From: Nautilus pompilius
Taxonomy: Eukaryota; Mollusca; Cephalopoda; Nautilida; Nautilidae
NCBI GenBank assembly: GCA_018389105.1
Contig: JACATO010000692.1
Span: 598,501-662,500 of the forward strand
Length of the DNA stretch: 64,000 bases
Reading direction: 5' to 3'
Part shown: positions 41,687 through 62,865 of the stretch, piece by piece
Position numbering within the stretch: the stretch's first letter is position 1
Layout: every line of letters starts with the position of its first letter
The notes under the pieces: model-generated
What the model was told of the DNA's origin: nothing
The model's database searches: none
Seen by the model: only the letters and a program-made list of their open reading frames with translations
Translations under genes and position numbers: made by a program

Positions 41687-42294
41687 GAGAGGGGAGAGGA
41701 GATATGGAGAGACACACAGAGAGAGAGACGGAAGAGAGATGGAGATATATGGAGAGACACACAGAGAGAGAGAGATATGGAGAGAGAGAGAGAGAGAGAC
41801 GGAGAGAGAGAGAGAGAGATATATGGAAAGCCACACACACAGAGGAGAGAAAGACGGAGAGATATGGAGAGACACAGAGAGAGAGAGAGAGAGAGTGAGA
41901 GAGAGAGATGGAGAGAGATAGGAGAGATGGAGAGATATGGAGAGACAGAGAGAGAGATGGAAAGAGAGAGAGAGAGAGAGATATGGAGAGACAACAGAGA
42001 GAGAGATGGAAAGAGAGAGAGAGAGAGAGAGATATGGAGAGAGAGAGAGAGGATGGAGAGATATGGAGACACACAGAAGAGAGAGACGGAGAGAGAGAGA
42101 GATATATGGAAAGACACACAGAGAGAGAGAGAGACGGAGAGATATGGAGAGACACACAGAGAGAGAGAGAGAGATATGGAGAGACACACACACAGAGAGA
42201 AGAGAGAGAGAGAGACGGAGAGATATGGAGAGACACACCAGAGAGAGATGAGAGATATGGAGACACAGAGAGAGAGACGGAGAGAGAGAGAGAA
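41511..42294. repeat. GA-rich minisatellite with ATATGGAGAGACACACAG unit
   Basis: After a pure GA run (about 41538-41608), the phrase ATATGGAGAGACACACAG recurs about 14 times, for example near 41702, 41748, 41862, 41934, 41980, 42059, 42141, 42174, 42223 and 42255. GA tracts and GACGGAGAG lie between copies. Several frames on both strands stay open for 140-290 codons. They are low-complexity Arg/Glu or Ser/Leu/Ile strings and are not called as genes. Confidence 0.92.
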
Positions 42295-43288
42295 GGTGGA
42301 ATCGTGGAATCTTTTATTCGCATTATATTTTTTTAAAAAAATAAAAGCGAAATTCAGAGCTTAAAATTTTTTTTTTTTTAATTAGAGTTTGGAAAGAGAT
42401 TTTCCCTGTGAGGTGAGGCCACTATTTTTTTTTTTTTTTAAGTTTAATGTCGCCTGGTAGATGTTGAGAATGGGAAAGATGCTGACGGTAGTTGGGGGTG
42501 ACGCGGGCGACACTGAGAAATAGCTGTATATATGCGCAAGCGGAGGAAGGAAAAAAAAAAAAAAAAAAGAAGGTCGGACAGAGAACGAAGGGGAAGTGCG
42601 AGAATTTATCTAAGCGACCGTCCGCAAATTTTCTAGGAATTTCTCCTTCCTCCTCCTCTGGCGGCGGGCGGACTACGTTTAGCGCGAAGACAACCCACGG
42701 GTGTTACCTCGATCCCGCGAACTATTTCTGGACGCGGTAGGCGGGCGGGCGGGCTGGCTAACCGACCGTTCGTTCGTGGCGTAACAGCTTCTTCGACTGC
42801 TTGTCGCCGTCGTGGCTGCGTCGTTTTCCCCCGGTCCAGACAGCATCTCGTCGTCACACCGCCGCAAAGTGCGTATTCTTATTTTCTGTGTGGTACCAAA
42901 CTGAAAACGAACTGGTTTCTCGCTCGAGCCGCTCTCCTCTCCCCCCACCAGCCATCTACCCCGCCGCGTACCTTGATCCGGGCTTCTTTCCTGCTGCTGC
43001 CGTTGTTGTTGTTGTTGTTGTTGTTTTTGTTTTTTGTTGTTGTTGTTGTTGTTGTTGTTTTTGTTTTATGGCGAAAATCAATCGGTTCTCTCTCTCTCCG
43101 CCCACAGTTGATTCTCCTCCTCCCTCGGGATCTCAGGCTAGGTGAGTTTTCGCACGAACGCCGGAGCAACCGGGTCGTTCGTTGGCGGCTGCCGCAGTTA
43201 ATCGGGGACGAGTCGCGGGAGGGGGTGAAGGGACGGACGGACGGACGGACGGACGGCGCTGTATCCCATAAGGCCATCGGCGGGCGGG

Positions 43289-43300
43289 TGCGCATGCGCG
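43289..43300 (+). promoter_or_regulatory. NRF1-like site
   Basis: TGCGCATGCGCG matches the NRF1 consensus (tandem GCGC-A/T half-sites). It lies about 160 bases before the start codon in the CpG island. Confidence 0.55.
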
Positions 43301-43457
43301 AGATCGGTGGCGGCTACGACTGGCGGCGGGCAGCGTTCGTTCGCCGGCGGAAAAAATAAAAAAAAAAAAAAAAAAGGAGAGAAAGAGGAGAAAAAAAGGA
43401 GAGGAGAGGAGGGGCGGGGACCTTTATTTCTCGCGGCCGGGTATAGAGAGAGAGAGG

Positions 43458-44126
43458 ATGTCAGACTCCCCGCACAAGGACCTGATCCTGGACACCATCG
43501 ACCGGCTGCGGAAGCGAAAGGCGCGGCCGGACCTGGAGCGGATCTGCCACATGGTGCTCCGCAGGTACGGGCTGGGCTCCGGGGAGACGGAGCGGCTGGT
43601 GGGGAAGCTGGTGGACGACGAGATCGTCTTCAAAGTGGAGTACAAGGGCAACGTGAGCTACAGGAACGCGGCGAAATGGCGGAGGAGCCGGATAGGCGGC
43701 GTGGTGATGAACTCGAGCCGGGCCAGCGAGAACCTGCGGAGCGCCATCGAGGCGCTCACCGGCGGCAACAACGACGACAACAACAACAACAACAACAAGA
43801 ACGGTGGTGGGGAGTCCAGGAGGGGCGCCAGCTCCGGCGACATCCAGAAGTGGCTCGCGGTCAACTACAAGGAGATGGCGAGGATTAACCTCCACGTGGC
43901 CCTGCAGAGGGAGGTGGACGCGAGCCGGGTGGGGCGGCTGGCGGACGGCTCGTACGTGACGCGCGAGCTGGTGGCGCCGAGGAAAGCGGCTCCTCCGAAG
44001 GAGAAGTCGGCGGACACCGCGACCGGCGGCAGACCTAAGAGTAAAGTCGGTTCCCGACAGCAGCAGGCCAAGAACAGCAGCAACACGTCGTCGTGTAAGC
44101 GCGGTCGGCCCACTTCAAAGAGAAAG
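43458..44126 (+). CDS. SAMD1: exon 1: winged helices and AT-hook
   Basis: Start ATG at 43458 has A at -3 and lies just after a GA run. [20 protein letters not shown] followed by CHMV, and later [13 protein letters not shown], are near-identical to the SAMD1 winged helix. An Asn-rich linker (residues 104-115) comes from an AAC run. The second segment, [20 protein letters not shown] then [17 protein letters not shown], resembles a winged helix and a matching region of SAMD1. GRPKSK and [10 protein letters not shown] are basic DNA-contact stretches. The exon ends in phase 0 at AAG|GTAGGT. It is GC-rich with strong G/C third positions, unlike the later AT-rich exons, because it lies in the CpG island. 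The frame reads through the donor to 44165, which would be the product if intron 1 were retained. Confidence 0.9.
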
Positions 44127-45912
44127 GTAGGTGGTACTGGCGAAGTGGGTGGGGCACTTCTCTGATCAGCTCCCCCCCCCGGTGTGAGGACGGAAAATAA
44201 ATACAACTCCTCCGAGATTTCAGACGAACCCTTAAAAGATTTAACTGACGTCCACTTAATTTTTTGTTATCCGACTTTTAAAAATATATATATAATGTGT
44301 AATAATACTTTGCATTTAATGTGGAGTCTGAGAACTTTCACTAGACTGTTGGATAAGCGAGAGAATTCTGATGGCGATTATAGGAGTTCCCGGAAATATG
44401 TTCCCAACATTTACATACCTGTTAAGGTGAGGAAAGGAAACTGCCTAAGAAGGGCGCATCATTGAGCGTGTACCTCGCTGACTTCCGGACACAGCAGAAC
44501 CAGTCGCTGCTTCCCCCCCTCCCCCCTGAAGGTAAAAGTCGGTCCTCACACCGGGCTGGCAATGAAGATCGAGAAAAGTTAATAACGAATACGGTTCACG
44601 TAACTCGCTGTTTGGTTTCCGTGTCAAGCTTTAAGACAAGAGGGGAGGAGCCCCCTTTTTTAAGTTAAAGGGATTTCGTCTCTGCTCCGTATTTTACTTT
44701 CGGTCGTTAGCTGGACTTTTAAGGAAACCGTCCGTCCGTGTCGGACGCCCGGTTGCCTGCCCGTACATGTTGTTGTGTTGTTTGTCCCCACTCAGCCATC
44801 GATCGATCGCTCCGGCCGTGAGTGAGATACTGTTATCGGCTGATTGATTTCTGGCCCGGCTCGTGCAAACTTTCGTTCGTTTGTTTGTTTGTTTAATCAG
44901 TAAGCTCCGGTCAGATGTACAGAACGAGGTAACCTTCCCCTTCGGGTGCCCGATCCCGCCCTCCCGTCACTTGGTCCTCGTCGTCGCTGCTGCTGCTGAC
45001 TCGGCTGTATTCATCATCATCATCATCATCGCTTGCTGTTTGTTCTCCGTGACCCACAAGTCGAGGTCATTTTAAAGATGGCGGCGTTGGTTGGTCGGCT
45101 GCTTACCTGAGAGAGAGAGAGAGAGAGAGGAGTTAATTTTTCTTTTAGTGCATCGAACGTATCCCCCCCCCCCCGGTTTGCTTACTAATCCCCCATCCCT
45201 CCCTCCCCCTCTCTCTCTCCATCTAAATGTCCCAACGTTGTTTTCTTTAATTCCGGTTACTCCGCACGTGCCGCGCGTAGCGACGAACGATATTCGATCT
45301 GTAGATTTTAATCGATTTTCTTTAGAATGAACAATAAAATCTTCCCTTTCCTGCTCCAAAATGTACATCACACACACACACACATCGGGCAGCAGCAGCA
45401 GCAGCATCAGCAGCAAAGACAAGACAGACAGCCCTACACTCCACGACGTGAGCGGCCCCACCGGCCGAATCCGGACTAGAACCGACCTTGCGCGCTTGCA
45501 TCATCGTTATCCGCCCGTAAAGTTAGCATCTTTATTTCTCGGCGACGACGACTGAGCGGATTACCGGCGGATTACCGGCGGGATGTGGCGGCGGCGCCAG
45601 TCAGGCGGGACAGATCACCGGCCGGCCGTACGTGACCGGCAAGGAACAGCGGCCGCTGACGTCATCAGCGCCGAGGATGACGTCGGAGACCATTCCGGAG
45701 TCAGTCTCGCCGAAACCGGATTTAGGGGATTTAGTGGCGAAAAGAGGCTAAAAAAGTACGTTTAAGAGGATCAATAATAACAATAATCCATTGTCATCCA
45801 ACTTTCGGTGTGTTGTCTTTTAGTCCCGTATATTATTGGTCTTCTCAACAGACTGACTAAGAATGAAATTCTTCCTTTTTCTCCTCCTGTTATTATAACC
45901 AACATCATTTAG

Positions 45913-45949
<37 letters not shown>

Positions 45950-48900
45950 GTAGTAGTAGTAGTAGTAGTGTTATTGTTATATTGTTGTACTTTAAAAACA
46001 AACAAACACTGCATGTCTTAATTCAAAAGTGATGAAACGGTCTCCCCTTAGTCTCCTCATCAGTCAAACGACCCCGGAGACGAACTTCTTTAGGGGATCA
46101 GAAAAAGCAGAGCAGCGAGAGAATAATTCCTTTGTTAACCTAAGATAACACGCTCCGGGCTAAACGATTAAGAGTATTTTATTGCTTCAAAGAAGAGATG
46201 CGGAAAGGAAGCAACAGAAACTTTACTTGAAAAAGGTACCTCCATCGCATTAGAACCAGGGGGGGGCAAACGATGCTAAATACCCGCAAGAGTAAACACA
46301 AACAACATTATGCTTTTAATTTGGTGATAATGGAAGCAAAAGAATCTATTAAAAGTTTCCATTGCATCAAATACATTGCTATCTACCAAAGAAATAGTAA
46401 ATAATGTTTCTAAAATTACCATTATTATTATTATTATTATTATACTTTTTTTTAGACAGCTATTGTTTTAATTGTGCAGAACTGGGCTTGCTAAAACCAA
46501 AGAAATCTCTCTTTGTAACAGTATAGGGTAAACAAATGGTTTATTTTACAGAAGTTTAAAAAGCAGCTAGGGCCAGATTTCGAGGGAGAGACCGTTCCAA
46601 CCAAGATGGGAGTTGACAAGTGTGACTTTTGTCTGCAAACAGCTGAAAATAATAAAATAGGTGAACAAGAAGAACTGCTCTTCTGTAATGACTGCCATGC
46701 TAAAGGTATGCCTTGTAAATTATTCTATTGCTAATACTTTCATGCATTTATATATTGATGTGTTAAATTTTCCATCCATGTTTATTTGGAAACAAACAAC
46801 CCCCTAATTTGGGTACCAACCCTCTTCTCTTTAAGGGCAACAAAATATATATTGTGGTCTCTCAATAATGGAATATCTAAAATTTCTATATAATATATTT
46901 ATTAGTGTGCATTGTTACTTGTATATTAACATAAGACATTTTAAAAAAGCTGTTTTATTAAGTTTATATTGGAACTTTGATTAAACAAGATATCATTTCC
47001 TTGCTTGATGACTTTTTTGCATATTTTTGGTATCTAGCTTGTTAATTTCCCCAAGTATTGAGAAGGCAAAGAATTCCATTTCTTACTTAAGTCATCCTCA
47101 ACTGTAGACTGCTCATTAGTTGGACCCTGTTCTTAACTCTTCCGCCTAGTTTATCCCAGACAAGCTCAGTAAGTATGAGTTCTGGAGATTAAGATAGACA
47201 GTTTTTTTTTTCATTTATTTGCTTTCATGATAGATGTTGTTTAGTGTGTTTGGCATCATCACCTTGTTGCATGTTAAAACCAGAGCCTGTCAGTCAGTAC
47301 TCAGTAGTGTGATGTTGCAAAATTTCATGGTACTTTTACTTTATAAGAATTTTATCACTTTTGATTACATTCCCAACCTGAGAACCACTAAGAGTCTAAA
47401 GCTTTCAGATTTTCTTCTCTACTTTTACCTGAATGCTCCCTTGCTCATGCAAGTTGGTCTTTCTTTCTTCCTCACCTAAGAAGTTTGCAAGCAGGTAACT
47501 GACCAATCAACCCAACCTCTCTCAAACACTTTTTGATGGTCATATAGAAGATGGAGCTTTGTGTATTAGAATTATGGTCAGTGGCTAAATCTGTTCTGGT
47601 AAGGAAGCAGTTTGCTCTAGGCTTTTTAATAATTGCCCTGTCATCTTTCCCCTTTCTAACAAGCTCATTTTTGTTGTGGACTATAGCTACAGCTGCCTTC
47701 TCAGTACTTACCTTACTACAGACTGAGAAGCCCCTACTTGTCGGGCTATTTTATGTTGAGAATGTTCAACTTTATTTAGTGTAATAAAAGAAATCAATTT
47801 TGCAAGTGTAATTTCTTGTTGTGAAGTCATTTCACCCAGTGACAAACAACAGGTAATTGTTCCACTTCAGAAAGCATTTAGATTTTAATTATTTATACTG
47901 ATCTTCACAAGGATTGTATGATTCAATAAATTCATGTTTTGGTTGCTAGTATGGTAAAAAATCACCAAGCTTGTGATCACTTCTTACATGAATTTGATGC
48001 AACATGTTCTGTTGTGAACATATTTTCCAACATTCATGCTAATACATGTAATTATATGCAGTAATAAATTAATTATATGTGTGGATATTTTACTGGTACA
48101 CCCACAACTATGGCTGCTAGTATATTCAAATGACACATGTAATAGACATTTGGCCCAGGTTTACTATTTTAAATAATTAATGGTTATGAATGGTGTGTTC
48201 ACTAAGGACTAAGAAGATACGGGTATAAATTTGATGGATTGCTACAGTTAGTTTGATGTTAACCCTGTAGGGCAAAACTAGGGAGAGACTTAGATGTGTA
48301 TCAGCACTGATTCAGGCAGGTAGAAGGACCGCGATATGGACTAGCTTTTCAGAAATGATCTGTAACTAGTGACTGCAGTGACAAATTTACAATCTACCTT
48401 TGTTTTTCTACCTTTAGTCAGTTGTCTTCCAGTCTCTGTGTATCAACAAAATAAACAGTTTTGTGCAGTGCCAGAATTTCCTTCAGAATGTTGTACACAT
48501 GCTGGGCCTACCCATTAGAAATACAGTAATATTCATCATTTTTATTAGTATTAATGTTTTACTGATGAGCCCTCCATTACAAATTCTGATTAAAAATTAT
48601 CAACATGTTCGTTGCTAATCTTAGGCAAGTTGATGGATCTTCAGTTTTATTTCTAACTGACAGCAGTACATTTTCAGCAGTCAGACAGCAGTCAGATGCA
48701 TTAGTGTAGTTGATTGGTTACCCAGTTTATTAAGTTTGTTCTGGCTGTCTGTCATGCTATTTGTCACCAATTTTAATGCTTGGAGTTTTGTTGGGTTAAA
48801 ATGACAAAAACCTTAAGACATTTAGTCAATTCAGAAGTTGCTAATTACTAAAAGTGTGTTAAAAGTATGATTTATATGTCATCTCCAACAGTAATAGTCA

Positions 48901-51900
48901 ATGTACACTAGATTGTTTGTCAGGTTGCTAAGCAATGAAAGACATCAATTTCTGGCAAAAGTATTGTTGCTGTTTATTTGCTACTTTGTTTGGTGATTGG
49001 TAACTAGGATTTTCATGGAGATGTCAACAAACTGAACCTCACTTGATTGGCTAAGAATTTTAATTGTAAATATGAACCTTTCAAAATGATGTAAGCTGCA
49101 CATTAATGTTCATATGTAATTGTTGCATGATACAGAAATTCAGAAATAATTTTAACTTCATTGATTCCCACCAAATTATTTATTATATCAGACAAATATG
49201 CAAGTTGAAAACAGAATTACATTGAACAATATTTAATATTTAGCATTTAAAAAAGTAAAAAGAGATATTGTTAAGTAAAACAAATAGTTATGGTGTGAAA
49301 AATGTATAAATACTGAGATAGCCAGTCTTTCTCCACACCTTTGTTTTTATTATCACTTATACAACCTGTCAAGGAAATTCTTTGTTTTTTTTTTCATTAA
49401 AAATACAGGCAACATTACATTAGATCACATGTAATAGATTTTTTTGAATTACTGAATCTTATTTCGGTAACTGGTGGTAACAGCTTAAAGTGTAATTTTT
49501 AATAAAATTAAGAACAAATTGAAAATGTGAAGCTTCCCAGTCTGACTTGATAATATATAAAACCTCCTTTGAATTATATCGACAGATTAACCACAATCAA
49601 TCATATAAGTGGCTATTTATTGGACTCTGTGAAAACTCTAGTTTTGTAGTCCATAAAATAGTGGTGATTTCTTTTAAAACCTAATTTTAAACTATTTATT
49701 TATGTAAAAAGAATAAATATTCAAAAATGATAGACACACTCTTATATGCGATGCAAGGTAAAGAACCAATCCTACATGTTTCTATTCATGGATGGCATCA
49801 GATGGGAATATGCATATTTAATAATTTGTCTGATTGCCTTTAGAATTTTTGTAAGCATGTATCAGACAACTATAAGACCAACACTGCTTTAACAGCCAAT
49901 CATCACTGTTTCTGGAAAGCTTACATTTCAGCAATGGTAATGAAAGGATTATAGCAAAAAGTTACTTTTGGAAGAACACTCACCTTATCCTCCATATTTC
50001 TACAAAAATCTACTTTTTGAATATTTTGTAGGCTTTAAATATTTCTTATTCTGCTGTTCCATTAATTGTTGCATCAGATTTCCTTACTGTACAGGTAGTT
50101 TATCCATCATTTAACTAAATGATTTATTTTTCAAAATTATAATCTATTGGTCAGAAAGATAGTTTAATACAGTAAAGAATCATGAAGCAGATATTCAGGA
50201 GATAATTGGGAAACTGATTGAGAATATAGAAATAACTGGAGGAAAATTTAAAATTTTTTTTACCTTGGTTAAACATATCTTTCTACAATGATCCTGATTA
50301 CAAACTACTATTTATTTATTCTTTCTTAGTGAAACCTGTCAACTAAGACCACTGAAAAATGTATTGAAGATGGTTTTGCATATGAGTAGCCCTTATATAC
50401 AAAACCATTTAGGTGCATAAAGGTTGCTTTTATACACAAACCTTTATGGTGCATAAAGATTTCTGGTATACATAACCAGTCAACAAGCCAAGTTTAATTT
50501 TCTCTCTTTGTGTTTAGCTCATCCATCATGCATGCAATACTCAGACGAACTAGCTAAACGAGCTCGTCGGTCACCATGGCAGTGCTTTGATTGCAAGGTG
50601 TGCAACATCTGTGAAGACTCTGGAGATGGTGTAAGTTCTTATTCTTCGTGTGTGTACATTTCATGCGTCTTAAGAGAACTGTTTGAGTCACCATTGAGGT
50701 TCATGACTGATACATGCAAGTAAACTGGAGGGAGAGTGTCATAAGTTTGCAGATTTGGAATAATATTAATTTTTTTAAATTGTCACTACCACTTTAGAGA
50801 AAAAACAATAATAATAAAGACTGAAAAATCAAATATGTTAGAAACTTTGCATTTAAACTCACATATTACACAGCTAAATTAAGATGTGCTTTCATGTGTT
50901 GTTTCTATTTACTTATAAAGTTTATCGATTTTATAGAATAAAATTCTTTTTAACATCTGAATTTTAAAAATGAATAAATAATTTTTTTGCAAGTGTTTGG
51001 AATATTTTTAACCTTTGAACCTACTGGAACAAACATAAAAAGCATAAAATTAGACAATCCTGAGGGGAACCTGTTGAAGAAAACACAAATGAAGATGATG
51101 ACTATTTGCCATCTGAACTTCTAATTATGATAATTTGATAAAATGTGGCAGAATGAAAAGTTTATAAAGCTGATGTGAAAAATGTTTCTTAAACTTTAGT
51201 TTAGTTTGAACAAGCAGCAAGAAGCCATCATTGTCCTACGCAGCCCCACTGAAGGTATATGAAATACCAATCAATTTTATTTTTAAATTGGTTTCTACTA
51301 TCACCATTGGCAACTACTGGTAGCTTATTCTATTGCTTTACAAGTTTGTTGTTTGTTTATTTTTTCTAATATCCAGATGTATTGCTGTTTTCATCATATT
51401 AATATTTAAGTGGCTGATTCAATTTAAATGATGGGATTAAACAGAATTTTACAACAGTAAAAGAATTACTAACTTGGGTAGTTACAACCTCCAGCTTTTT
51501 TTTTTATTCTGTACACACTCAGACCTTTGGTTTTTTCCTGCCCCTAATACTCAAATCTGGTAAATCAGATTCTTTTTGAAATCTTTAGCATAATTTGAAT
51601 ACTTGATTATTACCATGTTTGAATTAACAGGGATAGGGTTTAAAAGCACCTACCTACAATACTTTTGTTTTTATAAATGTCTATGAATGGACTAGCTGTA
51701 TATATATATATATACAATTTTAAGTATAAATTGAGGTTAGAAAGGAATCTATGCACTACAAATCCTCACAGACCCATGAAAATTGATAAGTAATGGTGGA
51801 TTCATGTACAGGTATGGTAGAGTACGATTATTGCATATTCATAAACTAGATGTTTTAAAAAATATTAAACATTTTTAAAAATCTTTAGTCTTTCATGGTT

Positions 51901-54900
51901 TTCCCAGTGTGGTAGATGTTTTTCCATTGGTTGGTTTATAGCTTTTTCTGGTTGCCATAGGATTTTCTTCCTTCCTTCCTTACTTCCTTCCTTTCTTTTT
52001 ATTTGAGATAATGGAGAAATTGTGACATCAGCAATTAATCTTTTCTATTCCATTGATTTCTTATTCAGTAGAGGCCAATTATGGATAATCACTGAACTTC
52101 TCCAGGTGTGGACTGAAGTTACGCATTGGTTGAAGTCTTTTGTAGTGCTAGTATCCAGGGTAAACGTGATCAGTATTCTGGCTTTGGAACCAGGACTCTA
52201 CTGGGAAAGCTCTAGCTTGTGTTACATCGAAAGGTGTTTGATCTGTACAGTCTTTTCACTTGTTGGACATCTTGTGAAGTGCTGCTGCATTCACCAGATA
52301 CTAGTGGCTAGAACACTCTTATGCATCTATAACCTGCTTGGGTGATGAGAGAAATCACTGACTCTATATTATAACATAAAGCATGGCTAAAGTCTTTTGG
52401 AGGGGCTGGTATTGACAAATGTAGGGGTATTTAGCATAAATAAAATTTTCAAAAATATTGTGGTGGAATTTTTATTTAATTTTTTAAATATTTTTAACTA
52501 CGTTATTTTTAAGGATTCCATGTTGTTCTGTGATGCTTGTGATAAGGGTTTTCACATGGACTGCCACAACCCACCACTGTCCGAGAAGCCAACAGGTGAG
52601 AATGTCAATAAAAGACAACCGCTCACAGATCTAGCCTGCTGTGAAAGTTATAGAGTTTTAAATCATGATCCCTTGCAACCTGAAATAAAGAAAATAACAG
52701 ATTTTTTTTTTTTTTTTACTTGTTCCTTACCTTTAAAATTCAAAGTGTCTGAATTAAATCTCCACAGAATCTTCAAGACACAACAATGAGAATTTTCATT
52801 TTTTTCTACTGTGGACGTTCAGATGAAACCTGGCTGAAAACAGCAGTACTATAACCACATCTGGCTGGGTTTTATTTGAATGTCCTTGGTGTTTGCTTCG
52901 TTAGTAACTGAGATTCTTCATTCCCCAACTCATACTGGTGAAACATTCTTGCACCCCTCCAACCTGTCAGCATCTTTTAACAGCATGAGGTTACTAAGCC
53001 TGGACTGCCAAGTGAGGTCTAAGCCAAAGTTTTATAGAGAAAAAATATGTGTAAACATGGCTACACGATAACTCCTGTATGCTTGAAAAGTTTTTTTCTA
53101 AATTTTAACAGTTAAACACCAGATTCATTTAAAGGTTACTTGTGATGACTTGTTTTTATGAAATCTGTAAAGAAAAAATGCAATTTTATATCTTCTTCTC
53201 TTTTTTTAAAATTCTTCAAAAACGAAAATAGATCAACAATTTAAATTGATCTTCATCCCTAATATAGAAATAGTTTACTTTATTCCTTTTTCTTAAATAG
53301 ATGCACAGTTTTAGAAATGATACAATGAATTTGGAAAACTTAAATAGAGTGGGTGTATTGAAGTTAACTAACTATTATAGAATATACTGGATAGATGGAT
53401 GACTGCACGAAATAGATTGGCTTAAAGCCACTGCACATACATGAACAGTGCAACAAAGATTTGTCACCAAAATTTGGTGGTGGTAAAATACTTTTTTTTT
53501 TAAAATTATTACAAAAATACATAATAACCTCTTAACGGCATTAGTATTGTGAAGAGCAGGTAGATTGAAGATCTTTGTAATTGGATTGTGCTGTTTGCAG
53601 GTTGTCTGCTATAACTCGTCGTCGTTCTTTGTGATTGACAAAGTGATTAAGATTTCTGTTAATTACAGGAAAATGGCTGTGTGGCTGGTGTATTTATGAA
53701 ACAAGAGAACAGCAGAATTATGATGATGTTACAATGTCACCTGCTTCAGAAAGTGCTAATGAGCTTAGTGAACAACAGAATACAGGTAAGTGGCTGGCTT
53801 GAAAAATACATTTTCACAAATTGATTCTTTATTATTTGGGTGAAAAAATATAACAGATTACTTAATGTATTTTATTTCCAAAGTATAAAACTGGTGGTGT
53901 TTGTGACCAAAGTGCAAATCAGGAAATGAGTTTATTTGGTTGTATTAATCTTTCAAAAAATTGTACAGGTAGCCAGTGGTTGACTTTTGCTCTCATAATT
54001 GGACCAGTTGAATTGATTGATTCCTGATCCTTTACATGTGTGATTATTTTTTCACATTAAAATTATAGCTGCCAAGGAGACAAACAACAATAACTAAACA
54101 GTAATCTTGAAATTTTTTTAAAAAATACATTTAATAATCTATTATTAGGATAAAATATTGTAGACACTTTAAATTTTATATTAAAAATAAATAAATAAAT
54201 ATGAATTTTGAGAAATTAAATTTATTTACTTTATTTGTACTCTCTTTGCCTGTCTCTCTGTCTGTCTAAACTCTTTCCTGGTCAGAAAATTTACAAGGTG
54301 GCTGCACAAATGCACCTACTTGTTTAAAATTCTCAAATAACACATATGTCTTAGCACACAGTTCAGTAATCCAAATTAAAAAGAAATATGTCCAGAATAT
54401 GAAAGAAGAATTTAATTTATAGTGCAGAAAGTAAAATAAAAATTTGGTGTAAAATCACCTGATTGATGTCACAGAGATACCAGTGCAAATTCAATTTCTT
54501 GTATCTCCTCACTGTCATTACTTTTGATGATAAGTCTGTCATCCTCACTCCAGTAATCCTCCATGGACAGCACAGAATTATAGTCATGTTTACTGCTATA
54601 AATGTTTTCATCCTCCCTGGTGATGTACCTCCAGGTGTTGTCAGCTTTGTCTGCCTCCCTTTTGGTCTGTGTGGCTTAGTGGTTAGACTCCTCAGGCATG
54701 TGGTGGAAGAAATCTGGTATCAGCTCAAAGAAGAAATCCACTAGCCTCAGGTCAACAGGGAAACAAATCTTCGGGCCAACACACACTCCGAAACATTGGC
54801 ATGTTGATTGGTCTCAGATGACTGAAAGTCCATTCAACAACCTTGCTCTCTTCACCACTCACCATTGTTGTCACTCTCCAGCTGTGTGATGCATTTACAA

Positions 54901-57900
54901 TGTCTCTCCATAGCTGTCCAAATAGCTAGATGATGAGGATCTCCACATCACCAGAAGGAAAGGATTCAAAGTTGGATTCCATCACAGAGCAAGTAGATAA
55001 AACAACTAGGTAATTCACTCTCACAGGAAAATGAAGCACTAAATATACATCTAAGAAGTGATAATGTGCCAGCATCCTCTCGAATGTACTCTATAGTATA
55101 GGGTGATCATTAAATAGCTTGTCAATACTCAACTGTTTTTGGTCAGTTTGCTTGGCACAGTTTTGGATGGCTTGCAGGGGAAAAGATTAAAAGTTTTCTG
55201 CAATTGTTTAATCTCTTAAAGGTTTTTTGTTTATTTCTTTCAGAAATGGCAGCTACTGAGGCAGTGATGTACTGCTTGCTCATTTTCCTGTCTTATTTTT
55301 ACGTTCGGTTGATAACTAATTTTTTGCTAATCAGTAAATCAGCAAACGTAGAGTGACAAGCAGATAATATTTTACATGTGAACCTTAATATGTGGTGCTG
55401 GTCAACTATAAAAAAAATTTGAGATGGTTCTCAGAGTGTAGATAGCTGGTGATCTTTAGATTTTTGAGAGACTAGGGGGTGAACAACCATCCTCAGGATG
55501 ATGTTCAGTCTGGAGGTGGAGTTGAGCCACCTTCCAAGACCTGACCTGAGTGGGTTATATAGATTAGCAGGTTTCAGATTGGATCTATAAAAAAACAAAC
55601 ATCCACACTGATTGGCTATTAGTTTGGGTGCTTCCTTCACCATTAGGGGCATAGAGTTTATAGGCATTTCATACACACACAATTTTTAAACTATTGCATC
55701 CACACATTGCTAGCCAACCCATTATTATTGTATAACTCAAAATATTTTCATTAATAATAAAGACACCATGTTTAAATTAATTTCATATTGCATCTGTATG
55801 TTATTTTTCTCTATTTCTTGTTTAATTTTCATCTACTAGCTTTTCTAAAGAGTAAAGGGTATTCTAGTAATTTCATTTATTAAAAAAAAATATTACTAAA
55901 ATTTTAACCATGTTTTTATGTTAAAAATATTTGTGAACAATCTGAAAAATTAGTACAGTTATCTTTTGAAGGTTAATTAATGGATATTCTTACTGCCTCT
56001 TGGTATAAACACAATCATCTTCAGTTTGTTTGTTTTCTAAATATCTGTATTTATCTGTTGGATTTTTGTTATGTTTGGTTTTAAAAAACAAATGAAAACT
56101 TCGCATTCACTTTCTCTTTCTCACAAGCAGGAACCAATAACTGGATATATAAATCTGCTCTGAACTACAGTTTAATACTTCGTCTACTTGCCGGATAAAT
56201 TCTGTGTTGAATATAACAGTTACTTGTGCTTGCCTTATTTCCTATCCAAGATGGACAAAGACTCTCTCTCTGATTTTATTTCATTTCCACACTTGATCTC
56301 TAAGGCAGAGTTTCCCAATCTAAGGTGCACCGAATTACCAAAACCATACAAAACTCACCTCTCTTTTTTTGTTGTTGTTGCTAATGATAATTAATAAAAT
56401 TAATCATATTATTTAAAATTGTAATTGTTAGTGTTCAATAACATTCTATTTCACATTAACCTATTTCATGCAAACTTTAAACAATTTTCTTTGAGTGAAC
56501 CTTCCAAGCCCCAATCCAGCCCTTCCCATTTTTTTCTTCAGGAAACCTAGGCTTTCTATTGTGGAGGTGTGCTGACTTTTGCTTTTTTGATTTGGCTGTA
56601 CAAAAAAAAAAATGGTTAGGTTAAAATTAGGTCCAATTTCAATAGGGGCTACTGTCAGGGCTTCCTTTTGAGGGACTGCATAAACTGAAGGTTACCTTTT
56701 CTCTCTCTCTCTCTCTCTCTCACTCACACACACACGCACAAGGTGTTGATAAATCATACATAGCTAACCCTCAAGGTTTTCTTATTAAATCACAAATTAC
56801 TTACATGTATGTGTGTATATATATATACAGGTTGGAAGGGGATTTCTGAGGTTGATTTTCAAGAAAAGTAAGCAATCCTTATGGCGAATTTATCAAATTT
56901 TTTTGTTTTTGTTTTTAATTTTTATTTTTGATCTGTTAATAATAAATAAACTTTTTACAAATTATTTTACTTAGTACAGTAGAACCTTTTTTATTCTGGA
57001 AATCCAAATAATAGAAACACTTAGAAAACCATCCATCATTTTGAATTGCTACCATAGTTCTGATGTCAGTAAAAACTGCACCAATCAAAGAAATGTTGCC
57101 AACACAATTGTTTTGCTTCAGTTTCCTACACAAAACTCTTTGTCATTTGCTTCCAATTGTCTCATTCACATGGTGAATGGCAAAAGAGGCAAAGCATGGG
57201 AAATTGAAGCAAACTGAGCTTGTGTCGGTGACATTTTTATTGATTGGGGCAGTTTTGTACTCTGATACCAGCAGTAGATTCATCCTAGTTGTTTACAAGC
57301 CACATGTGAGCCAAGTGGTACATTTTTCTTGATTATTTCACAGTAATGGCTGATCCAAAGTGGTGTTCTACTCCTATTACGGGTCCTAGTTAATGGTGGC
57401 AATAATAGTAGAGGCAGTAAGTGTAGTGAAAGAGTTGAGGCTAAGAAAATGAATGCTGGAAAATTAAGTGATGGTACAAAATGGCAGAGGGATGTGCTAA
57501 GCATATAGCTTAAGTGGAGTTATTGGAAAAATTCTAACAATTACTTTCCTACAATACATACAACACAATGCTTTATTATACAGTAGATATGTTTAAAGTG
57601 TATAATATCTGTGTTTATTAATCATTATTTTGGGGGAGGTTAAATTAAGCTTCATAACAATTTACATGATATCTGTTAACTGGAAACACAACTTGTGTGA
57701 TATCTATTAACTAGAAGAAGCATTTATCAAGCCAAGAGGTTCTACTCTATAACTGCTATGCTTTATTTTATATGATTTAAAGCTTTGCTACATAGATATA
57801 GATATATATCACAGTAAAATTTAAAGATATACTGATAATTGCTCTTCTGTATCCTACTAATGTCATTGGTATTCAATCCTCTGTCTACAAGGACATAGGA

Positions 57901-60900
57901 TTCTCTATCTCTCTCTCACACTCACACACACACACACACACACACATCTACCTTCTGTGGTTCTACTAGTTAGAAGATAGGAAGAGGGAGCAAGCATACT
58001 CTCTAGTCTTGGATTCAGAAATTCAGCAAAATAGGAACTTTAAAGATTGCAAGAGAAACAATTATATTCACTTTAAAAATAACTTCTTTTTTTTTCACAT
58101 CACTGGTAATGCTAAGCCTGTAACTACAATTTTAAATGTTGTTTTCTTTCTTTTAAATTAATTTTAGACTTTTAATACTCTTTGAATTAACATGTATATT
58201 TGGGTGTAGTAACTGAATTATTGTATTGTCTTAAGATAAGCAAATAATTCTTAAAATTTTTCCAGTATTGTAATAATTACTTAATGAATGTGAAACAGTG
58301 CACATATTATTTTTCATGATTGCAAAATGCTTAGCTGTAGAATTACATTTCTAAAGTGGTATAATAATGAAATAAATGTCACGTATTCCTGTAGGACTCC
58401 TGAATTAATAATTGAAGTTGGAACTGTTATCATTTTAATGGAGATGTCAGTTTGGCTTGTTATCCTTGGGTAGTAGTTTGTTATGCATTTATAGTTAAGT
58501 TCCAAGGCAGTAAGTAGTATGTTATAGTTATATAGATAATCCCTCAGCTAGTAATATGTTATATTTCTATAGTTACCCCTCAGTTCACTTTACCTTTATA
58601 ATTAACCCTGCATTAAGTTTGTTATACCTCTCTAGTTACCCCTCACTTTGACTTGTTAGCCCTTTAGGCAGGAAGTATGTTAACCCTTAACTAGTAGTAA
58701 TATGTTATATTTCTATAATTACCCCTCAGTCTGATTAGCCTCTATATTTAGTTCTTAATGTTTTATATCTCTCTCTTTATCCTCTCAGGTAGTAGTATTA
58801 GTAGTAGTATGTTATATCTATACTTAAACATCTAACTACTTTGGTGAATATATAGCATTTGGTTTCCACTGAGAAATGTTTTTAAAAAAGACAAGGTGAC
58901 ATTTGTCAGGAAAGAGTTGTCTATTTAGCCAATTTAAAAATAGACAGAAAGTAGTCTGTCTTCTTGCTCTATGGTTCACATTATGGTATTGGTAAAACAG
59001 GGTCCAATTGAAGTCTGGCTGTCTTGCCTTATTTTTTGTAATAACCAATGCAAATTACTTGTCACCCACCTTTAAAAAAAGTCAAAACTAATTTCCTTTT
59101 CAGTTTGACTGAGATCCAGAAATACTATTTTAAAAAATATGTGGCAGTGGATATCATCGTTTACACTCAGTTCCCCACCTCTAAACAGCCTCTGGAGGTG
59201 GAGATGAGAGCAAACCAACATTAAATCATTCTTTCTTTCTTCTACTTTGCTTTACTTTTTTCTTTTAGTATCATTAGTACATATATTTTATTGTCTCCTT
59301 TATTATTATTCATCATCCCTTGTGTTTACTAACAACTTCATGCTCAAATAATTTCTGGTCTTGTAATGTTGAAATATTCTGTTGTTTTTGGTGATAACTA
59401 AATTTTGGTGAAAGCTGTATGTATATTTGTTTCATTTCTTAAATTATTTTATTATGTTTTCAGATACTGGTGGAGCATCGTGCTTGCCAACGCCATGCGA
59501 TTCTCCTGTACTATCTGACTCCTGGGGTAAAGAAAAGTGAGTCCAATAGAATTTTGTCTTCTCTATTGCCAGTATTTTACTTACTTATCTTAAAAACTGA
59601 TATTTATCAATACTGCATCAGTCATTAACATGAAAACAAGCATTTATATAAACAATGGCTTTAGATTGATTCTTGTCTGGTTCCTGTCTGAGGCAGTTTC
59701 ACCAACTTACTATCATGAGCCTTTTTTATATTTTCTTTTACTTCTAATGAGAAGAGTTCTTAGTGGGTCTGCTCCTGCTGAAGTTGCCTGTATTCAACAT
59801 TTGTCTGCACAAGGATGGATAGTTGCCCTGGTAACTTCAGTTGGGATGCTGCACAGTTCTTTGAGAATTCAGCATTTCTTAGCAAGTTCACATAGATTAA
59901 GAGGAAATGAAAAACTAGAATTTAAAGCAAACTTGCACCACTTTGCTTCATTCTGAACACTTTTCTTATGGCTTCCTCAATCCTAACAGGCACTTTTTAA
60001 ATGTTCATTTTAATTTTTTTTAAACATGATTATGGTTTATTCAGAATATATAGCATGATTACACAAATCTCTTAATTTAATAACTATATGTAGTGTCTTC
60101 TTTAGTGGGTGGTGTGCATTTATGTAGATGTAAATGGTGGGTGTTGGGTCCTCTGGTAGATTACTGTCTTGCTAAAGTTGAGGGCCCAAATTCAGATCTT
60201 GGTCAGGACTGGCCCAGTTTGGTGTATTTCCATACCATGGTTTCTTCTTGCTCTTCTTCACCAGCCAGCCTTGTGGCTTTTTTCTGGGCTCTCCAGTTTC
60301 CTCACATTTGAAAAAATGAAGAGTTGTCATAGGGATTTTCTGTGGTAGGTGTTTGGTTTAGGGAGCTGAAGCCGGGGAATTTCTTCTAGTGCGTGTCTTG
60401 CATGCTGATGCGAGTATGCAGGTTTGAGGAAGGAAGAAATAGGGAGGGAAATTAGTTTTACTTGCTTTCTTCTCTTAAAAGGTGGTTTTTACTCCATCTT
60501 TGAAATTCATGTATAATAAGGGGGGTTTTTTGGTATTGGGGTATTAAGCCATTCAGAGTCCAATATAATGGTGGGGGGGCAGCTTTGGAAGATGAATAAG
60601 ACTGTCTTGAGGTAGGAACATTATGATCTACATGTTGCGAGGGAACGGAAATAAACTGATGTGTTCTTTGTTTCTCTTTTTTCTGTGACAGTCGTCTTTG
60701 TGTGACGCTTATGACTTTGCAGGAAAAGTCTGGTTTTATATGATCTGGTGAATATTTACTCATTAGCTGCTTGCCAAATGTGGGCTGCTCATATACAGCA
60801 GTACCTTTTAGCCACATTGATAGTGTATTTTCTGGGACACCAAACTGTTCAGTGATTTCTGGATTTTTCTTCTTGCCACCTTTGATGATTTCTATGGCTT

Positions 60901-62865
60901 CTTGTTTATCTCCAGTAGACTTTACATCCGACTTGCATTTCTACAGACACCGAGTTAATGAGGTCAGCAAGCAATGACTACAAAATATGTCATGTCTTTC
61001 ATGAATTTAATTCTGGAATATTTTATTATAATAGATCACACAATTATACATTGAATTCTTATTCATACACAAATCATAACAATCTGACCTGCAATTCCAA
61101 TTTTGCTTCAGCAGTTGTCGTTGAATTGTCACGTGAAAGGGTATTAAACATTTCTTTAACAATAAGCATTGTTTTCCCTCCATCTAGAGAGTAGTTGATC
61201 ACACCTAATTTGGCTTGCATATTCGTCAACTTTAAATGCGATTTCAAAGAAAATCTTTGATGTAACTGGAAGATTTGTGTTTGGGAGTTATGAAAAAGGT
61301 TTGACTTAACTGCACATTCACGATAAATGAATTTGATTAAGTTATGCAGGAATTTTTCCAGGGATTTTTTAAAAAGTTTGAGATGATAAGAGTTTATTGT
61401 ATTATTATCATCATCTTTGATGATTTTATTTTGTTTTCCACTTACAAATAATTCCGAGAGAAGAAAACTTTAATTGTGCTACTTATTATTATTATTATTA
61501 TTAGTAGTAGTAGTATTACAATAATAATTTCTAAAGCAAACTTATTCTGTTGAAGTGTATGGATGCATGATTGTTCTCACTATATACACTAAAAGTTTGC
61601 TAAGGATCAAATGATTATCAACAAGTCATAATATTACATATAATACTAGTACAATGAACTCTGGGTCCCTAACCCTTACCACCTTGAGATTCTTACCCAC
61701 AGTATTGCGTCAAGATCTGAAATGCACATGAATATACAACTCCCTGATTTTCGCGTAATTATCAGTGTGCTGCATGTTGTCATTTTTTTTTTATTTAAGA
61801 AGATCTTCATTACCAAATTGGGCACTTTTGATGCTGGTTGATATACAGAATGGCGCAGCGGTGACAAAGACAACATTGCCAACTACAGAACTTGCTGGAA
61901 ACTGCTGAACAACTCATTGTAAATAAGCTTAGTGTGAGCCAGAGCACCATTTTGCTTTTTGATTTTGCAAGCAAACAAAACTGTTTCTGGAAAAAAAACT
62001 AAGCTGAAGTCTGACCTTCAAAATGCAACATGTGTCACTGTCTTAACCCAAACTGTAATCACCCTCAGGCTAATAGTGTGCAGGTAAGAAAAGCCTGTAT
62101 CATCACGCCACTTGGCAAAGGACTAGATGCCTGTACTTTTCACAGACAAGACCAGATTTTGTCCAGGCTTTCAGAGTGTGAAGAAAGTCAAAAGAAGGTT
62201 TAAAGATACCAACATTGCTGAACATATGCACTATAGAGGTGACTCGTTAATGGTGTAGGGAGAGATTAGATGGGATGGCAAGACTGACCATCATGATTTT
62301 TCAGAGTCAAGATACAGGAATGAGATCTTTGTGTTTACTTGAGGCCATATGCTGATGTTAACCTGTCCACACTGACTGAGTTGGCCAGTATCTAGAGCAA
62401 GTTACAATCATCCATACTGAGTGGCTTATTCTTCAGACCTTAATCCAATCAAACATGTTAGGAAGATGCTTCAGGGTGCCATTACAAGACATCTTGATCT
62501 TCCACATTCCTTGCAGAAACTCTGTGTGACGCCCTTACAGAGGAATGGGTTCCCAGATACCACTTAAAGACTCATTAAGAGAATCATTAGATACCAGTGT
62601 CAAGTTGCATTTATACTAAAGGTTCTTATATAAGATAGTGATTTTTTTACCCTTAGAAATTTTTGAGTAGTGTGCATTCTGTTTTTGTTCCAGTGAACTG
62701 AATTTTAACAAAATCAAATCCAATATGGAGATTCTTTTACCGCCTTCCAAACGGATGAAATATAGTGACAGTCATTCAGCTGCTGCTGATTGGTCAGTGG
62801 ATGATGTGGCTGATTTTATTCAGTCTGCTGGCTTTTTAACAGAGGCTGAAGCATTTAAAGAGCAG
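43458..62865 (+). CDS. SAMD1: SAMD1-like protein with winged helix, double PHD finger and SAM domain (5' part, seven exons)
   Basis: Seven coding exons joined at GT/AG sites give an uninterrupted 460-codon reading that leaves the window at the right. Residues 1-75 form a SAMD1-type winged helix. Vertebrate SAMD1 uses this fold to bind unmethylated CpG islands. Residues 125-170 look like a second winged helix. Residues 214-223 ([10 protein letters not shown]) are AT-hook-like. Two PHD fingers follow: C247, C250, C268, C271, H276, C279, C297, C300, then C303, C306, C318, C321, H326, C329, C344, C347. The two-residue gap between fingers is as in the double PHD of KAT6 and DPF proteins. Residues 435-460 start a SAM domain ([16 protein letters not shown]). 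Vertebrate SAMD1 has the winged helix and SAM but no PHD; KAT6A/B has winged helices and double PHD but then a MYST acetyltransferase. I infer a nuclear chromatin reader, orthologous or close to SAMD1. The spliced joins rest on my reading and not on transcripts. Confidence 0.85.
45075..45085 (+). promoter_or_regulatory. YY1-like site
   Basis: AAGATGGCGGC is the canonical YY1 motif in its usual sense orientation. In animals this motif often sits just downstream of a transcription start, so it could mark an alternative start inside intron 1. Confidence 0.45.
45657..45685. promoter_or_regulatory. paired CRE/ATF-like sites
   Basis: A perfect TGACGTCA at 45657-45664 is followed 13 bases later by TGACGTCG at 45678-45685, within a CpG-dense stretch (about 45450-45720) of intron 1. 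Two half-turn-related sites in open CpG DNA are a plausible CREB/ATF element. Confidence 0.45.
45913..45969. repeat. compound (TTA)n(GTA)n microsatellite
   Basis: About 12 ATT units pass into about 7 AGT units, the same order as at 14980-15080. Confidence 0.95.
46552..46705 (+). CDS. SAMD1: exon 2: first half of PHD finger 1
   Basis: The acceptor is TTATTTTACAG and the donor AAAG|GTATGC. The exon enters in phase 0 and leaves with one base over. It encodes a basic KFKKQLG start and then CDFCLQT and [11 protein letters not shown], giving zinc ligands C247, C250, C268 and C271. The order and spacing match KAT6-type PHD1. Confidence 0.9.
46706..50517 (+). other. intron 2
   Basis: 3812 bases, AT-rich. 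It contains a decayed Tc1 transposon on the minus strand (46985-47770). From about 47900 to 50517 I recognise nothing beyond short A/T tracts. Confidence 0.75.
46985..47770 (-). pseudogene. Tc1-like transposase relic
   Basis: Minus-strand reading shows, in order: [12 protein letters not shown] and [18 protein letters not shown] (N-terminal DNA-binding part), [15 protein letters not shown], then [13 protein letters not shown] (matching the Tc1 QDNDPKHT block with the second catalytic Asp region), [16 protein letters not shown], and [14 protein letters not shown] near the C-terminus. Stops and shifts break the frame many times. It is an old insertion in intron 2, opposite in strand to the host gene. 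TIRs were not found. Confidence 0.78.
50518..50630 (+). CDS. SAMD1: exon 3: end of PHD finger 1, start of PHD finger 2
   Basis: The acceptor is TTGTGTTTAG and the donor GATGGT|GTAAGT. It encodes [18 protein letters not shown], then [18 protein letters not shown]. It supplies H276, C279, C297 and C300 of finger 1 and C303 and C306 of finger 2. The GTGTAAG donor allows a cut two bases earlier, but only the 50630 end keeps the phase with exon 4. Confidence 0.92.
50631..52513 (+). other. intron 3
   Basis: 1883 bases, AT-rich, with a TA run near 51700 and a TTCC run near 51970-52000. The 107-codon frame at 52022-52345 has no domain and is not called. Confidence 0.75.
52514..52595 (+). CDS. SAMD1: exon 4: core of PHD finger 2
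   Basis: The acceptor is TATTTTTAAG and the donor ACAG|GTGAGA. It encodes [20 protein letters not shown] then PLSEKPT, the diagnostic second finger of KAT6/DPF-type double PHD, with C318, C321, H326 and C329. It enters in phase 0 and leaves in phase 1. Confidence 0.93.
52596..53668 (+). other. intron 4
   Basis: 1073 bases, AT-rich, with poly-T near 52700. No nested gene or transposon recognised. Confidence 0.75.
53669..53785 (+). CDS. SAMD1: exon 5: end of PHD finger 2 and acidic linker
   Basis: The acceptor is TTAATTACAG and the donor ACAG|GTAAGT. It encodes [16 protein letters not shown] (C344 and C347, the last zinc ligands) and then a Ser/Glu/Asn-rich linker ([17 protein letters not shown]). 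Phase 1 on both sides. Confidence 0.9.
54664..54780 (+). repeat. tRNA-derived SINE candidate
   Basis: GTGTGGCTTAGTGGTTAGAC is a good RNA polymerase III A box in tRNA context (T-G-G-C-T-T-A-G-T-G-G). About 45 bases on, GGTATCAGCTC lies where a weak B box could be. The rest of the element and its end are not clear. Confidence 0.45.
56977..57747. mobile_element. pogo/Tigger-type MITE, about 771 bp
   Basis: The left end is CAGTAGAACCTTTTTTATTC. The right end, read inward, is GAGTAGAACCTCTTGG. CAGTAGAACCTC is a common pogo/Tigger TIR start. TA flanks both ends (56975-56976 and 57748-57749). I see no transposase motif inside, so I take it as non-autonomous. Confidence 0.75.
57923..57946. repeat. 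(AC)n microsatellite
   Basis: Short AC run preceded by a CT run, in intron 5. Confidence 0.9.
58440..58830 (+). repeat. degenerate minisatellite, about 60-75 bp period
   Basis: At least six diverged copies of a unit containing ATGTTATATTTCTATAGTTA followed by CCCCTCAG. The best copies are near 58549 and 58697, with weaker ones near 58475, 58522, 58628 and 58766. GTAGTAGT phrases lie between copies. Confidence 0.75.
59464..59536 (+). CDS. SAMD1: exon 6: linker between PHD and SAM
   Basis: The acceptor is TATGTTTTCAG and the donor GAAAA|GTGAGT. It encodes a Pro/Ser/Asp-rich linker, [18 protein letters not shown] then SWGKE, with no fold predicted by eye. It enters in phase 1 and leaves in phase 2. 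It is short and rests on phase agreement with both neighbours, so it is less certain than the PHD exons. Confidence 0.78.
60105..60310 (+). repeat. tRNA-derived SINE candidate
   Basis: GGGTCCTCTGGTAGATTACT resembles an A-box arm, and GGCCCAAATTCAGATC about 35 bases on resembles a B-box arm (GGTTCAAATCC type). About 100 bases later TTCTGGGCTCTCCAGTTTCC matches the conserved invertebrate SINE-like phrase also seen at 38740. Together they fit a head-plus-core SINE. The 3' tail is not defined. Confidence 0.5.
60728..60950 (-). pseudogene. Tigger-like N-terminal HTH fragment
   Basis: An open minus-strand reading gives [20 protein letters not shown], then [20 protein letters not shown]. This is a CENP-B/psq-type helix-turn-helix as in Tigger/JRK transposases. 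It continues as [20 protein letters not shown] into unrecognised sequence. The DDE domain is absent. It is a truncated relic in intron 6, antisense to the host gene. Confidence 0.7.
61483..61515. repeat. compound (TTA)n(GTA)n microsatellite
   Basis: A short example of the same compound repeat as at 14980 and 45913. Confidence 0.9.
61847..62630 (+). pseudogene. Tc1-like transposase relic
   Basis: Plus-strand traces in Tc1 order: an N-terminal trace ([17 protein letters not shown]), [20 protein letters not shown] (matching GDSLMVWGGIS), [16 protein letters not shown], then [20 protein letters not shown] (the SPDLNPIEHVW block with the last catalytic region), LPHSLQKLC, and finally [18 protein letters not shown]. 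Many stops and shifts. It lies in intron 6 in the same orientation as the gene, ending just upstream of exon 7. Confidence 0.83.
62694..62865 (+). CDS. SAMD1: exon 7: start of SAM domain
   Basis: The acceptor is TTTGTTCCAG and the donor GCAG|GTAAGA. It enters in phase 2 and leaves in phase 0. It encodes [10 protein letters not shown] (a basic, NLS-like patch) and then [20 protein letters not shown] followed by EAFKEQ, helix 1 and 2 of a SAM domain. It lines up with the start of the C-terminal SAM of vertebrate SAMD1, where a following exon carries the ID-GK-LL segment. That exon is beyond the window. Confidence 0.9.

What the first reader, a model, noticed from the sequence alone, without database searches (positions are those of the whole stretch)
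43458..62865. SAMD1-type ends around a KAT6-type double PHD finger in one gene
The first winged helix and the start of the SAM domain match vertebrate SAMD1. The middle holds a complete tandem PHD module with all 16 zinc ligands, as in KAT6A/B and DPF proteins. Established knowledge: vertebrate SAMD1 is a CpG-island binder with winged helix and SAM only, while KAT6 has winged helices and a double PHD that reads acylated H3 but ends in a MYST acetyltransferase. A protein with all three would couple unmethylated CpG binding, H3-tail reading and SAM-based assembly. It may preserve the ancestral form from which SAMD1 (PHD lost) and KAT6 (MYST gained) modules derive, or it may be a lineage-specific fusion.
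Basis: partly seen in the sequence, partly recalled or inferred. Interest (0 to 1): 0.78.

Follow-up and report, generated by a model that had tools for sequence, protein, structure and literature searches.

The report
SAMD1-type protein with double PHD fingers
This invertebrate gene makes a DNA- and histone-reading protein of an old animal family, usually mislabelled as an acetyltransferase, and the vertebrate protein SAMD1 looks like the same gene after it lost its histone-reading part.

Summary
It is no lineage-specific fusion: 85 of 120 listed homologues have all four domains, from corals to amphioxus, mostly auto-named 'KAT6-like' or 'atherin', none of the 120 with MYST. Trees separate the family from KAT6; vertebrate SAMD1 joins it on WH1. 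SAMD1 has no DPF in 133 of 133 rows, while fish forms keep a reduced WH2 (26 of 28) and the exon 6 linker motif (18 of 28). So 'ancestral form of SAMD1' is supported; 'ancestor of KAT6' is not (root open; the DPF tree leans the other way). Acyl-H3 reading is doubtful: pocket residue G237 is Ala/Val/Leu in 113 of 113 family DPFs, Gly in 8 of 8 KAT6. Most likely a CpG-DNA plus H3 N-terminus reader assembled through SAM; function is inferred, not shown. The sequences are in databases; ten paper searches listed no description of this architecture, but two key papers were not held.

The parts
43458..44126 (+). Exon 1 (223 codons): WH1 (residues 6-74, SAMD1 type), WH2 (86-170, linker-histone-like winged helix), basic linker
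46552..46705 (+). Exon 2: start of PHD1 (C247, C250, C268, C271)
   Evidence: phase and splice sites; part of the KAT6A DPF match in PDB
50518..50630 (+). Exon 3: end of PHD1 and start of PHD2 (HPSC ... CNIC)
   Evidence: phase and splice sites; with exon 4 a frame-preserving 195-nt pair
52514..52595 (+). Exon 4: core of PHD2 (CDAC ... HMDC)
   Evidence: phase and splice sites
53669..53785 (+). Exon 5: end of PHD2 (WLCGWC) and linker
   Evidence: phase and splice sites
59464..59536 (+).
   Evidence: splice-phase scan (row 5 of 10 candidates) and tblastn with homologues
62694..62865 (+). Exon 7: linker and first 29 residues of the SAM domain; the continuation was not found in the window
   Evidence: family SAM profile 28.8 bits, 1.4e-8; SAMD1 SAM alignment; no continuation found in 62866-64000
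42300..46300 (.). Promoter side, exon 1 and most of intron 1: CpG o/e 1.18, ahead of a CpG-depleted gene body (0.17)

Best explanation
The gene encodes the invertebrate (ancestral-type) orthologue of SAMD1: WH1 - WH2 - DPF - conserved linker - SAM. Supported here by sequence and predicted structure: the architecture, its spread across animals, its separation from KAT6, and vertebrate SAMD1 being this protein without the DPF. Inferred: WH1 binds unmethylated CpG in the SAMD1 manner (R20/K21 correspond to SAMD1 R45/K46); WH2 binds nucleosomal DNA as the H1-like WH2 of MORF does; PHD2 holds the unmodified H3 N-terminus (most A1/R2 contact residues conserved); PHD1 has a narrowed acyl pocket and should bind H3K14 acyl groups poorly, or favour small or no modification; SAM self-assembles and/or docks an L3MBTL-type SAM protein. 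The most likely role is a chromatin adaptor, probably repressive, that joins CpG DNA and H3-tail reading to a SAM-built complex. No enzyme domain was found in it.
For: Gene model in frame. 85 of 120 listed homologues have WH1, WH2, DPF and SAM by profile; named taxa include molluscs, brachiopod, annelids, nemertean, myriapods, chelicerates, insects, flatworm, echinoderms, hemichordates, amphioxus, corals. WH1 tree (45 rows): SAM-type + vertebrate SAMD1 against KAT6, 99/99, 100/97 without 5 long rows. DPF tree: 29 of 29 SAM-type rows one group, 97/90; 24 of 24, 99/97 without 5 long rows. R45-equivalent: Arg in 115 of 117 SAM-type rows (2 gaps) and 134 of 134 SAMD1 rows, Gln in 7 of 7 KAT6 rows. 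Vertebrate SAMD1: WH2 profile at 8 bits or more in 28 of 133 vs 0 of 2660 shuffles; linker motif 18 of 133 vs 1 of 2660. Profile-profile, vertebrate rows chosen without the WH2 profile: 94.9%, E 4.5e-8; WH2 against KAT6 92.7%; eight control pairs 0 to 5.4%. Pfam SAMD1_SHD hits the WH2 of amphioxus at 7.4e-6. H3R2-binding D282 and D285 kept in 108 and 108 of 113; G237 replaced in 113 of 113; roles of these residues from passages of PMC3902925, PMC7800603, PMC9329655. The chiton homologue's model matches the SAMD1 SAM (6luk, TM 0.93 on the target) and the SAMD1/L3MBTL3 SAM complex chain 8y77.
Against: No transcript for this gene, and the last SAM exon is not in the window. The WH2 profile reaches 8 bits in only 2 of the 105 non-fish SAMD1 rows and the linker motif in 0 of 105. 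Vertebrate SAMD1 against KAT6 WH2 directly gives only 0.2%. In the WH1 tree vertebrate SAMD1 joins cnidarians (81/77; 80/80 without long rows) rather than amphioxus, on 73 columns with long branches and a bootstrap that had not settled. The amphioxus SAMD1_SHD hit is just under Pfam's cut-off (26.3 vs 27) and the window protein itself shows no SAMD1_SHD or Linker_histone hit. Ala at 237 is small and may still leave room for acetyl; no binding was measured. F211 is Phe in 55 and Tyr in 44 of 113; M300 (H3 A1/T3 contact in MOZ) is Lys in 94 of 113; D276 is kept in 80. Repression is carried over from mammalian SAMD1 literature.
Confidence: 0.77

Rival explanations
1. It is a plain KAT6 gene: the MYST domain lies in exons beyond the window.
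For: Automatic names of many homologues are 'histone acetyltransferase KAT6A/B-like'; WH1-WH2-DPF order is that of KAT6 (P0252).
Against: Exon 7 starts a SAM domain; 0 of 120 listed rows carry PF01853; of the 30 rows six carry PF01853 and none of those a SAM domain; WH1 has Arg, not Gln, at the R45 site; trees split the two.
Confidence: 0.02
2. Lineage-specific fusion of a SAMD1-like and a KAT6/DPF-like gene.
For: None found beyond the novelty of the combination to a reader who knows vertebrate proteins.
Against: Same architecture in corals, ecdysozoans, lophotrochozoans, echinoderms, hemichordates and amphioxus; the SAM-type DPFs are one group.
Confidence: 0.01
3. Same protein, but the DPF reads H3K14 acylation just as KAT6/DPF2 do, so it would be an activator-side reader.
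For: The chiton homologue's DPF model matches MOZ/DPF3 complexes with acylated H3; W257 and C259 in 113 of 113; D210 (98 of 113) as in DPF2.
Against: G237, called the most important pocket residue and present in all six mammalian DPF proteins (passage of PMC7800603), is Ala (95), Val (17) or Leu (1) in 113 of 113; 235-236 are mostly Ala (76) and Lys (88) instead of the Asn/Ser or Arg and Ser of KAT6 and DPF2.
Confidence: 0.3
4. Vertebrate SAMD1 is not the DPF-less orthologue but an independent assembly of WH1 and SAM.
For: 103 of 105 non-fish SAMD1 rows show no WH2 at 8 bits and 105 of 105 no linker motif; weak place in the WH1 tree.
Confidence: 0.08
5. The SAM type arose from a KAT6-like gene that exchanged MYST for SAM, so KAT6 is the older form.
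For: With human DPF2 as the only outgroup the DPF tree puts the SAM type beside the Hydra-like KAT6 rows, inside KAT6 (97/87; 97/89).
Against: KAT6 as one group is not rejected (AU p 0.0765) and on WH1 KAT6 is one group; one distant outgroup row.
Confidence: 0.35

Closest known systems
Vertebrate SAMD1 (atherin)
   Same: WH1 with the CpG-contact Arg-Lys, WH2 remnant (Pfam SAMD1_SHD), linker motif (in 18 of 28 fish rows), SAM like 6luj/6luk
   Different: No DPF in 133 of 133 SAMD1 rows; the window protein has a complete DPF and a full WH2 fold
KAT6A/KAT6B (MOZ/MORF) N-terminus
   Same: Order WH1 - H1-like WH2 - DPF; DPF of the chiton homologue 50% identical to MOZ in the structural alignment
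   Different: KAT6 goes on to MYST, not SAM; Gln instead of Arg at the R45 site (7 of 7); Gly237 kept (8 of 8); separate group on WH1
DPF1-3 and PHF10
   Same: Double PHD finger fold
   Different: No WH or SAM in those (recalled); pocket Gly kept there (PMC7800603), replaced here
Uncharacterised 'KAT6-like'/'atherin' proteins of invertebrates (e.g. Liolophura P0001, Lingula P0002, Branchiostoma P0010)
   Same: Same architecture; this is its family
   Different: Ordinary divergence (51, 48 and 43% identity to the window protein)

Membership tests
SAMD1 | SAMD1-type winged helix (PF21524) | tested here: met
   89.7 bits vs cut-off 24.5; 6lui E 2e-19
SAMD1 | Arg-Lys of the CpG-contact loop (R45/K46, mutated in the WH mutant of PMC11343471, passage) | tested here: met
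   Structural alignment model 3-73 to 6lui 28-98 puts R20/K21 at 45/46; conservation
SAMD1 | SAMD1-type SAM domain at the C-terminus | tested here: inconclusive
   Only 29 residues in the window, 1.4e-8 with the family profile; complete in homologues
SAMD1 | CpG-island binding and KDM1A/L3MBTL3 partners | not testable with these tools
   needs binding and pull-down experiments
KAT6 (MOZ/MORF) | MYST acetyltransferase domain | tested here: not met
   None in the window or in the 120 listed rows; the window protein's own last exon is unread
KAT6 (MOZ/MORF) | falls inside KAT6 on WH1 and DPF | tested here: inconclusive
   Outside KAT6 on WH1 (99/99); on DPF the SAM type is its own group (97/90) but lies beside the Hydra-like KAT6 rows when rooted on DPF2; KAT6 as one clade not rejected (p 0.0765)
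DPF (double PHD finger) domain | two PHDs in tandem with 16 zinc ligands | tested here: met
   16 of 16; PDB 5b78 4.4e-34
DPF (double PHD finger) domain | acyl-pocket Gly (G237 in MOZ) | tested here: not met
   Ala in the window; A95 V17 L1 of 113
DPF1-3/PHF10 proteins | their own N-terminal domains (Requiem/C2H2 or SAY) | tested here: not met
   Pfam scan of the window protein lists none; the definition is recalled

The most novel reading that the evidence does not exclude
Animals ancestrally had a seventh kind of DPF protein, a CpG-DNA plus H3-tail co-reader whose acyl pocket is shut (G237 to Ala/Val) so that it recognises the unmodified H3 N-terminus, the product of KDM1A action, and builds SAM-based repressive assemblies; the vertebrate line deleted exactly this H3 reader and left SAMD1, whose 'small helical domain' is a decayed H1-like winged helix.
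Probability: 0.4. Interest if true: 0.68.

Novelty: new variant of a known kind. Interest (0 to 1): 0.52.

Why it matters
It gives SAMD1, described as having orthologues in most vertebrates (passage of PMC9944271), a deep animal ancestry and a lost histone-reading domain, explains its 'small helical domain' as a decayed WH2, and corrects the frequent automatic naming of these proteins as acetyltransferases. The review of DPF evolution of which I saw passages counts six DPF proteins, and its text holds neither 'SAM domain' nor 'SAMD1' nor 'atherin' (PMC8538644). It also makes a testable prediction: a naturally narrowed DPF acyl pocket.

Tried and rejected
Lineage-specific fusion: rejected by distribution. 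Plain KAT6: rejected. Continuation of SAM in 62866-64000: nothing found. The window's own genome: the genome search did not complete, so neither the last exon nor the species' own KAT6 or DPF genes could be looked up. Two papers on the SAMD1 and KAT6A winged helices (PMC8115922, PMC9881136) are not held; whether they mention PHD-bearing invertebrate forms is unknown to me, which limits the novelty claim. Paper searches: no listed title or abstract start describes WH-DPF-SAM; I looked into passages of 8 papers only (PMC9908889, PMC9944271, PMC11343471, PMC3902925, PMC7800603, PMC9329655, PMC8538644, PMC11678306). No tRNA or Rfam match in the window. VIA-align rows for the exon 1 model are dominated by WH1. 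The linker-motif profile is short: at 3 bits 25 of 133 real and 34 of 2660 shuffled stretches pass, so 8 bits was used as the mark. A first profile-profile test used vertebrate rows picked by the WH2 profile and WH2 rows that still held WH1 columns; it was replaced.

Full report
Observation. Seven exons at 43458-44126, 46552-46705, 50518-50630, 52514-52595, 53669-53785, 59464-59536 and 62694-62865 splice in frame into 460 open codons. The outer coordinates of the finding are the start codon and the donor of the SAM exon. Exon 6 was not in the finding: exon 5 ends in phase 1 and the SAM exon needs phase 2, so an exon had to lie between; a phase scan listed 59464-59536 among ten candidates, and tblastn with the homologues independently hit the same place ([13 protein letters not shown]).

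Family. The first search returned 424 proteins, 120 listed. By profile 85 of these 120 hold WH1, WH2, DPF and SAM, 83 of them scored in that order; the others lack one or more parts (11 WH1-WH2, 9 WH1-DPF-SAM, 9 DPF-SAM, 3 WH1-WH2-DPF, 2 WH2-DPF-SAM, 1 WH2-WH1). None of the 120 shows a MYST domain in the precomputed Pfam column. In a search for longer proteins (30 hits) six have MYST and none of those has SAM.

Relation to KAT6 and SAMD1. The second search, with human SAMD1 ends, gave 859 proteins; all 120 listed lack PF00628, and the 118 that bear names are vertebrates. With 13 more, 133 of 133 have WH1 and SAM and none a DPF. The lists are capped, so cyclostomes, sharks and tunicates were not seen. 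In trees SAM-type plus vertebrate SAMD1 stand against KAT6 on WH1 (99/99; only 73 columns, long branches flagged, bootstrap not settled) and all 29 SAM-type DPFs form one group (97/90). Dropping five long rows from each gave 100/97 and 99/97. Hydra has a KAT6, and the corals Montipora and Xenia the SAM type, so the two families had parted before cnidarians and bilaterians did. The root is open: on the DPF, with human DPF2 as the only outgroup, the SAM type lies beside the Hydra-like KAT6 rows and inside KAT6 (97/87; 97/89 without long rows), which would make KAT6 the older form; KAT6 as one clade is not rejected (p 0.0765). 'KAT6 derives from this' is therefore not shown and, if anything, the DPF tree leans the other way.

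What vertebrates lost. The stretch between WH1 and SAM of SAMD1 matches the WH2 profile at 8 bits or more in 28 of 133 rows, against 0 of 2660 shuffled stretches; the linker motif in 18 of 133 against 1 of 2660. Of 28 fish rows (lungfish included) 26 pass on WH2 and 18 on the linker; of the other 105 rows 2 (both turtles) and 0 (sorted by the names, 2 of the 105 unnamed). Seventeen rows have both. A profile-profile comparison of WH2 (101 rows) with 90 SAMD1 rows picked by similarity to the Pfam SAMD1_SHD stretch of one fish, not by the WH2 profile, gives 94.9% and 4.5e-8; WH2 against KAT6 gives 92.7% and 4.3e-7; eight control pairs give 0 to 5.4%; vertebrate SAMD1 against KAT6 directly gives 0.2%. 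SAMD1_SHD hits the WH2 of amphioxus (7.4e-6, just under cut-off). The simplest history is loss of the DPF block alone.

A possible route for the loss. Exons 3 and 4 together are 195 nt, a frame-preserving pair that holds most of the DPF core. A predicted oyster isoform (P0108) skips exactly the matching stretch. That isoform also has a different end in the SAM domain and is only a database prediction.

Function, inferred. R20/K21 equal SAMD1 R45/K46 by the structural alignment; R45A/K46A is the WH mutant named in PMC11343471 (passage). Arg stands there in 115 of 117 SAM-type rows (2 gaps) and 134 of 134 SAMD1 rows, Gln in 7 of 7 KAT6 rows. For the DPF, PMC3902925 (passages) assigns H3R2 to D282/D285 and H3A1 to M300, P301, W305 and G303; the Asps are kept in 108 and 108 of 113, P301 in 107, W305 in 109, G303 in 105, but M300 is Lys in 94. 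G237, which two reviews call critical for the acyl pocket (passages of PMC7800603 and PMC9329655) and which is filled by Phe/Tyr in classical PHDs, is Ala, Val or Leu in all 113. I therefore expect H3 N-terminus binding with weak or no gain from K14 acylation. SAMD1 recruits L3MBTL3 and KDM1A (passages of PMC11343471); a reader of unmodified H3K4 would suit a KDM1A partner, but this last link is speculation.

Setting. CpG observed/expected is 0.99 over 1-41000, 1.18 over 42300-46300 and 0.17 over 46500-64000, with TpG 1.25 and CpA 1.30 in the last: the signature of germline gene-body methylation, with a step right before exon 2. If unmethylated CpG is the default outside gene bodies in this genome, WH1 cannot mark 'islands' as in mammals; what it selects is open.

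Organism. The best hit of the whole protein and the nearest DPF (67%) are from the chiton Liolophura, though the highest WH1 identity is to a tick (70%); a mollusc or other lophotrochozoan is likely, not established.

Novelty. The proteins sit in public databases under misleading names. In ten paper searches I saw no account of a WH-DPF-SAM protein; the two most relevant papers were not held. Hence 'new variant of a known kind'.

Noticed in passing
window 46300-64000 versus 1-46300: Sharp drop of CpG o/e from about 1.0-1.2 to 0.17 with raised TpG/CpA, starting just before exon 2: looks like historical gene-body methylation.
   Followed up: partly
P0108 versus P0046 (Ostrea edulis isoforms X5 and X3): A predicted oyster isoform skips exactly the part of the DPF that the window's exons 3+4 encode (195 nt, in frame), and differs after ...EQ in the SAM domain.
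   Followed up: partly
window 62200-62580 +: Stretch with a PDLNPIKH-like motif just ahead of the SAM exon, resembling a decayed Tc1/mariner transposase (motif recalled, no database hit sought).
   Followed up: no
window 60461-60940 -: 160-codon open frame between exons 6 and 7 with a helix-turn-helix-transposase look (recalled); no Pfam match.
   Followed up: partly
window 41506-42293: About 790 bases of (AG)n-type repeat some 1.2 kb upstream of the start codon; further AG-rich arrays, several with a TGACGTCAGTACAG core, lie at 8.8-28 kb.
   Followed up: no
window 13669-13941 -: Open frame with a weak Spin-doc zinc-finger match (4.5e-4, under cut-off), and further open frames at 1217-2837 and 13042-13323 on the same strand, possibly transposon remnants (guess).
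   Followed up: no
Insect members P0111 (beetle) and P0243 (planthopper): Their DPF is very divergent (end branches of 4.1 and 2.2 changes per site) while WH1 stays recognisable: the DPF may be decaying in insects as well.
   Followed up: no
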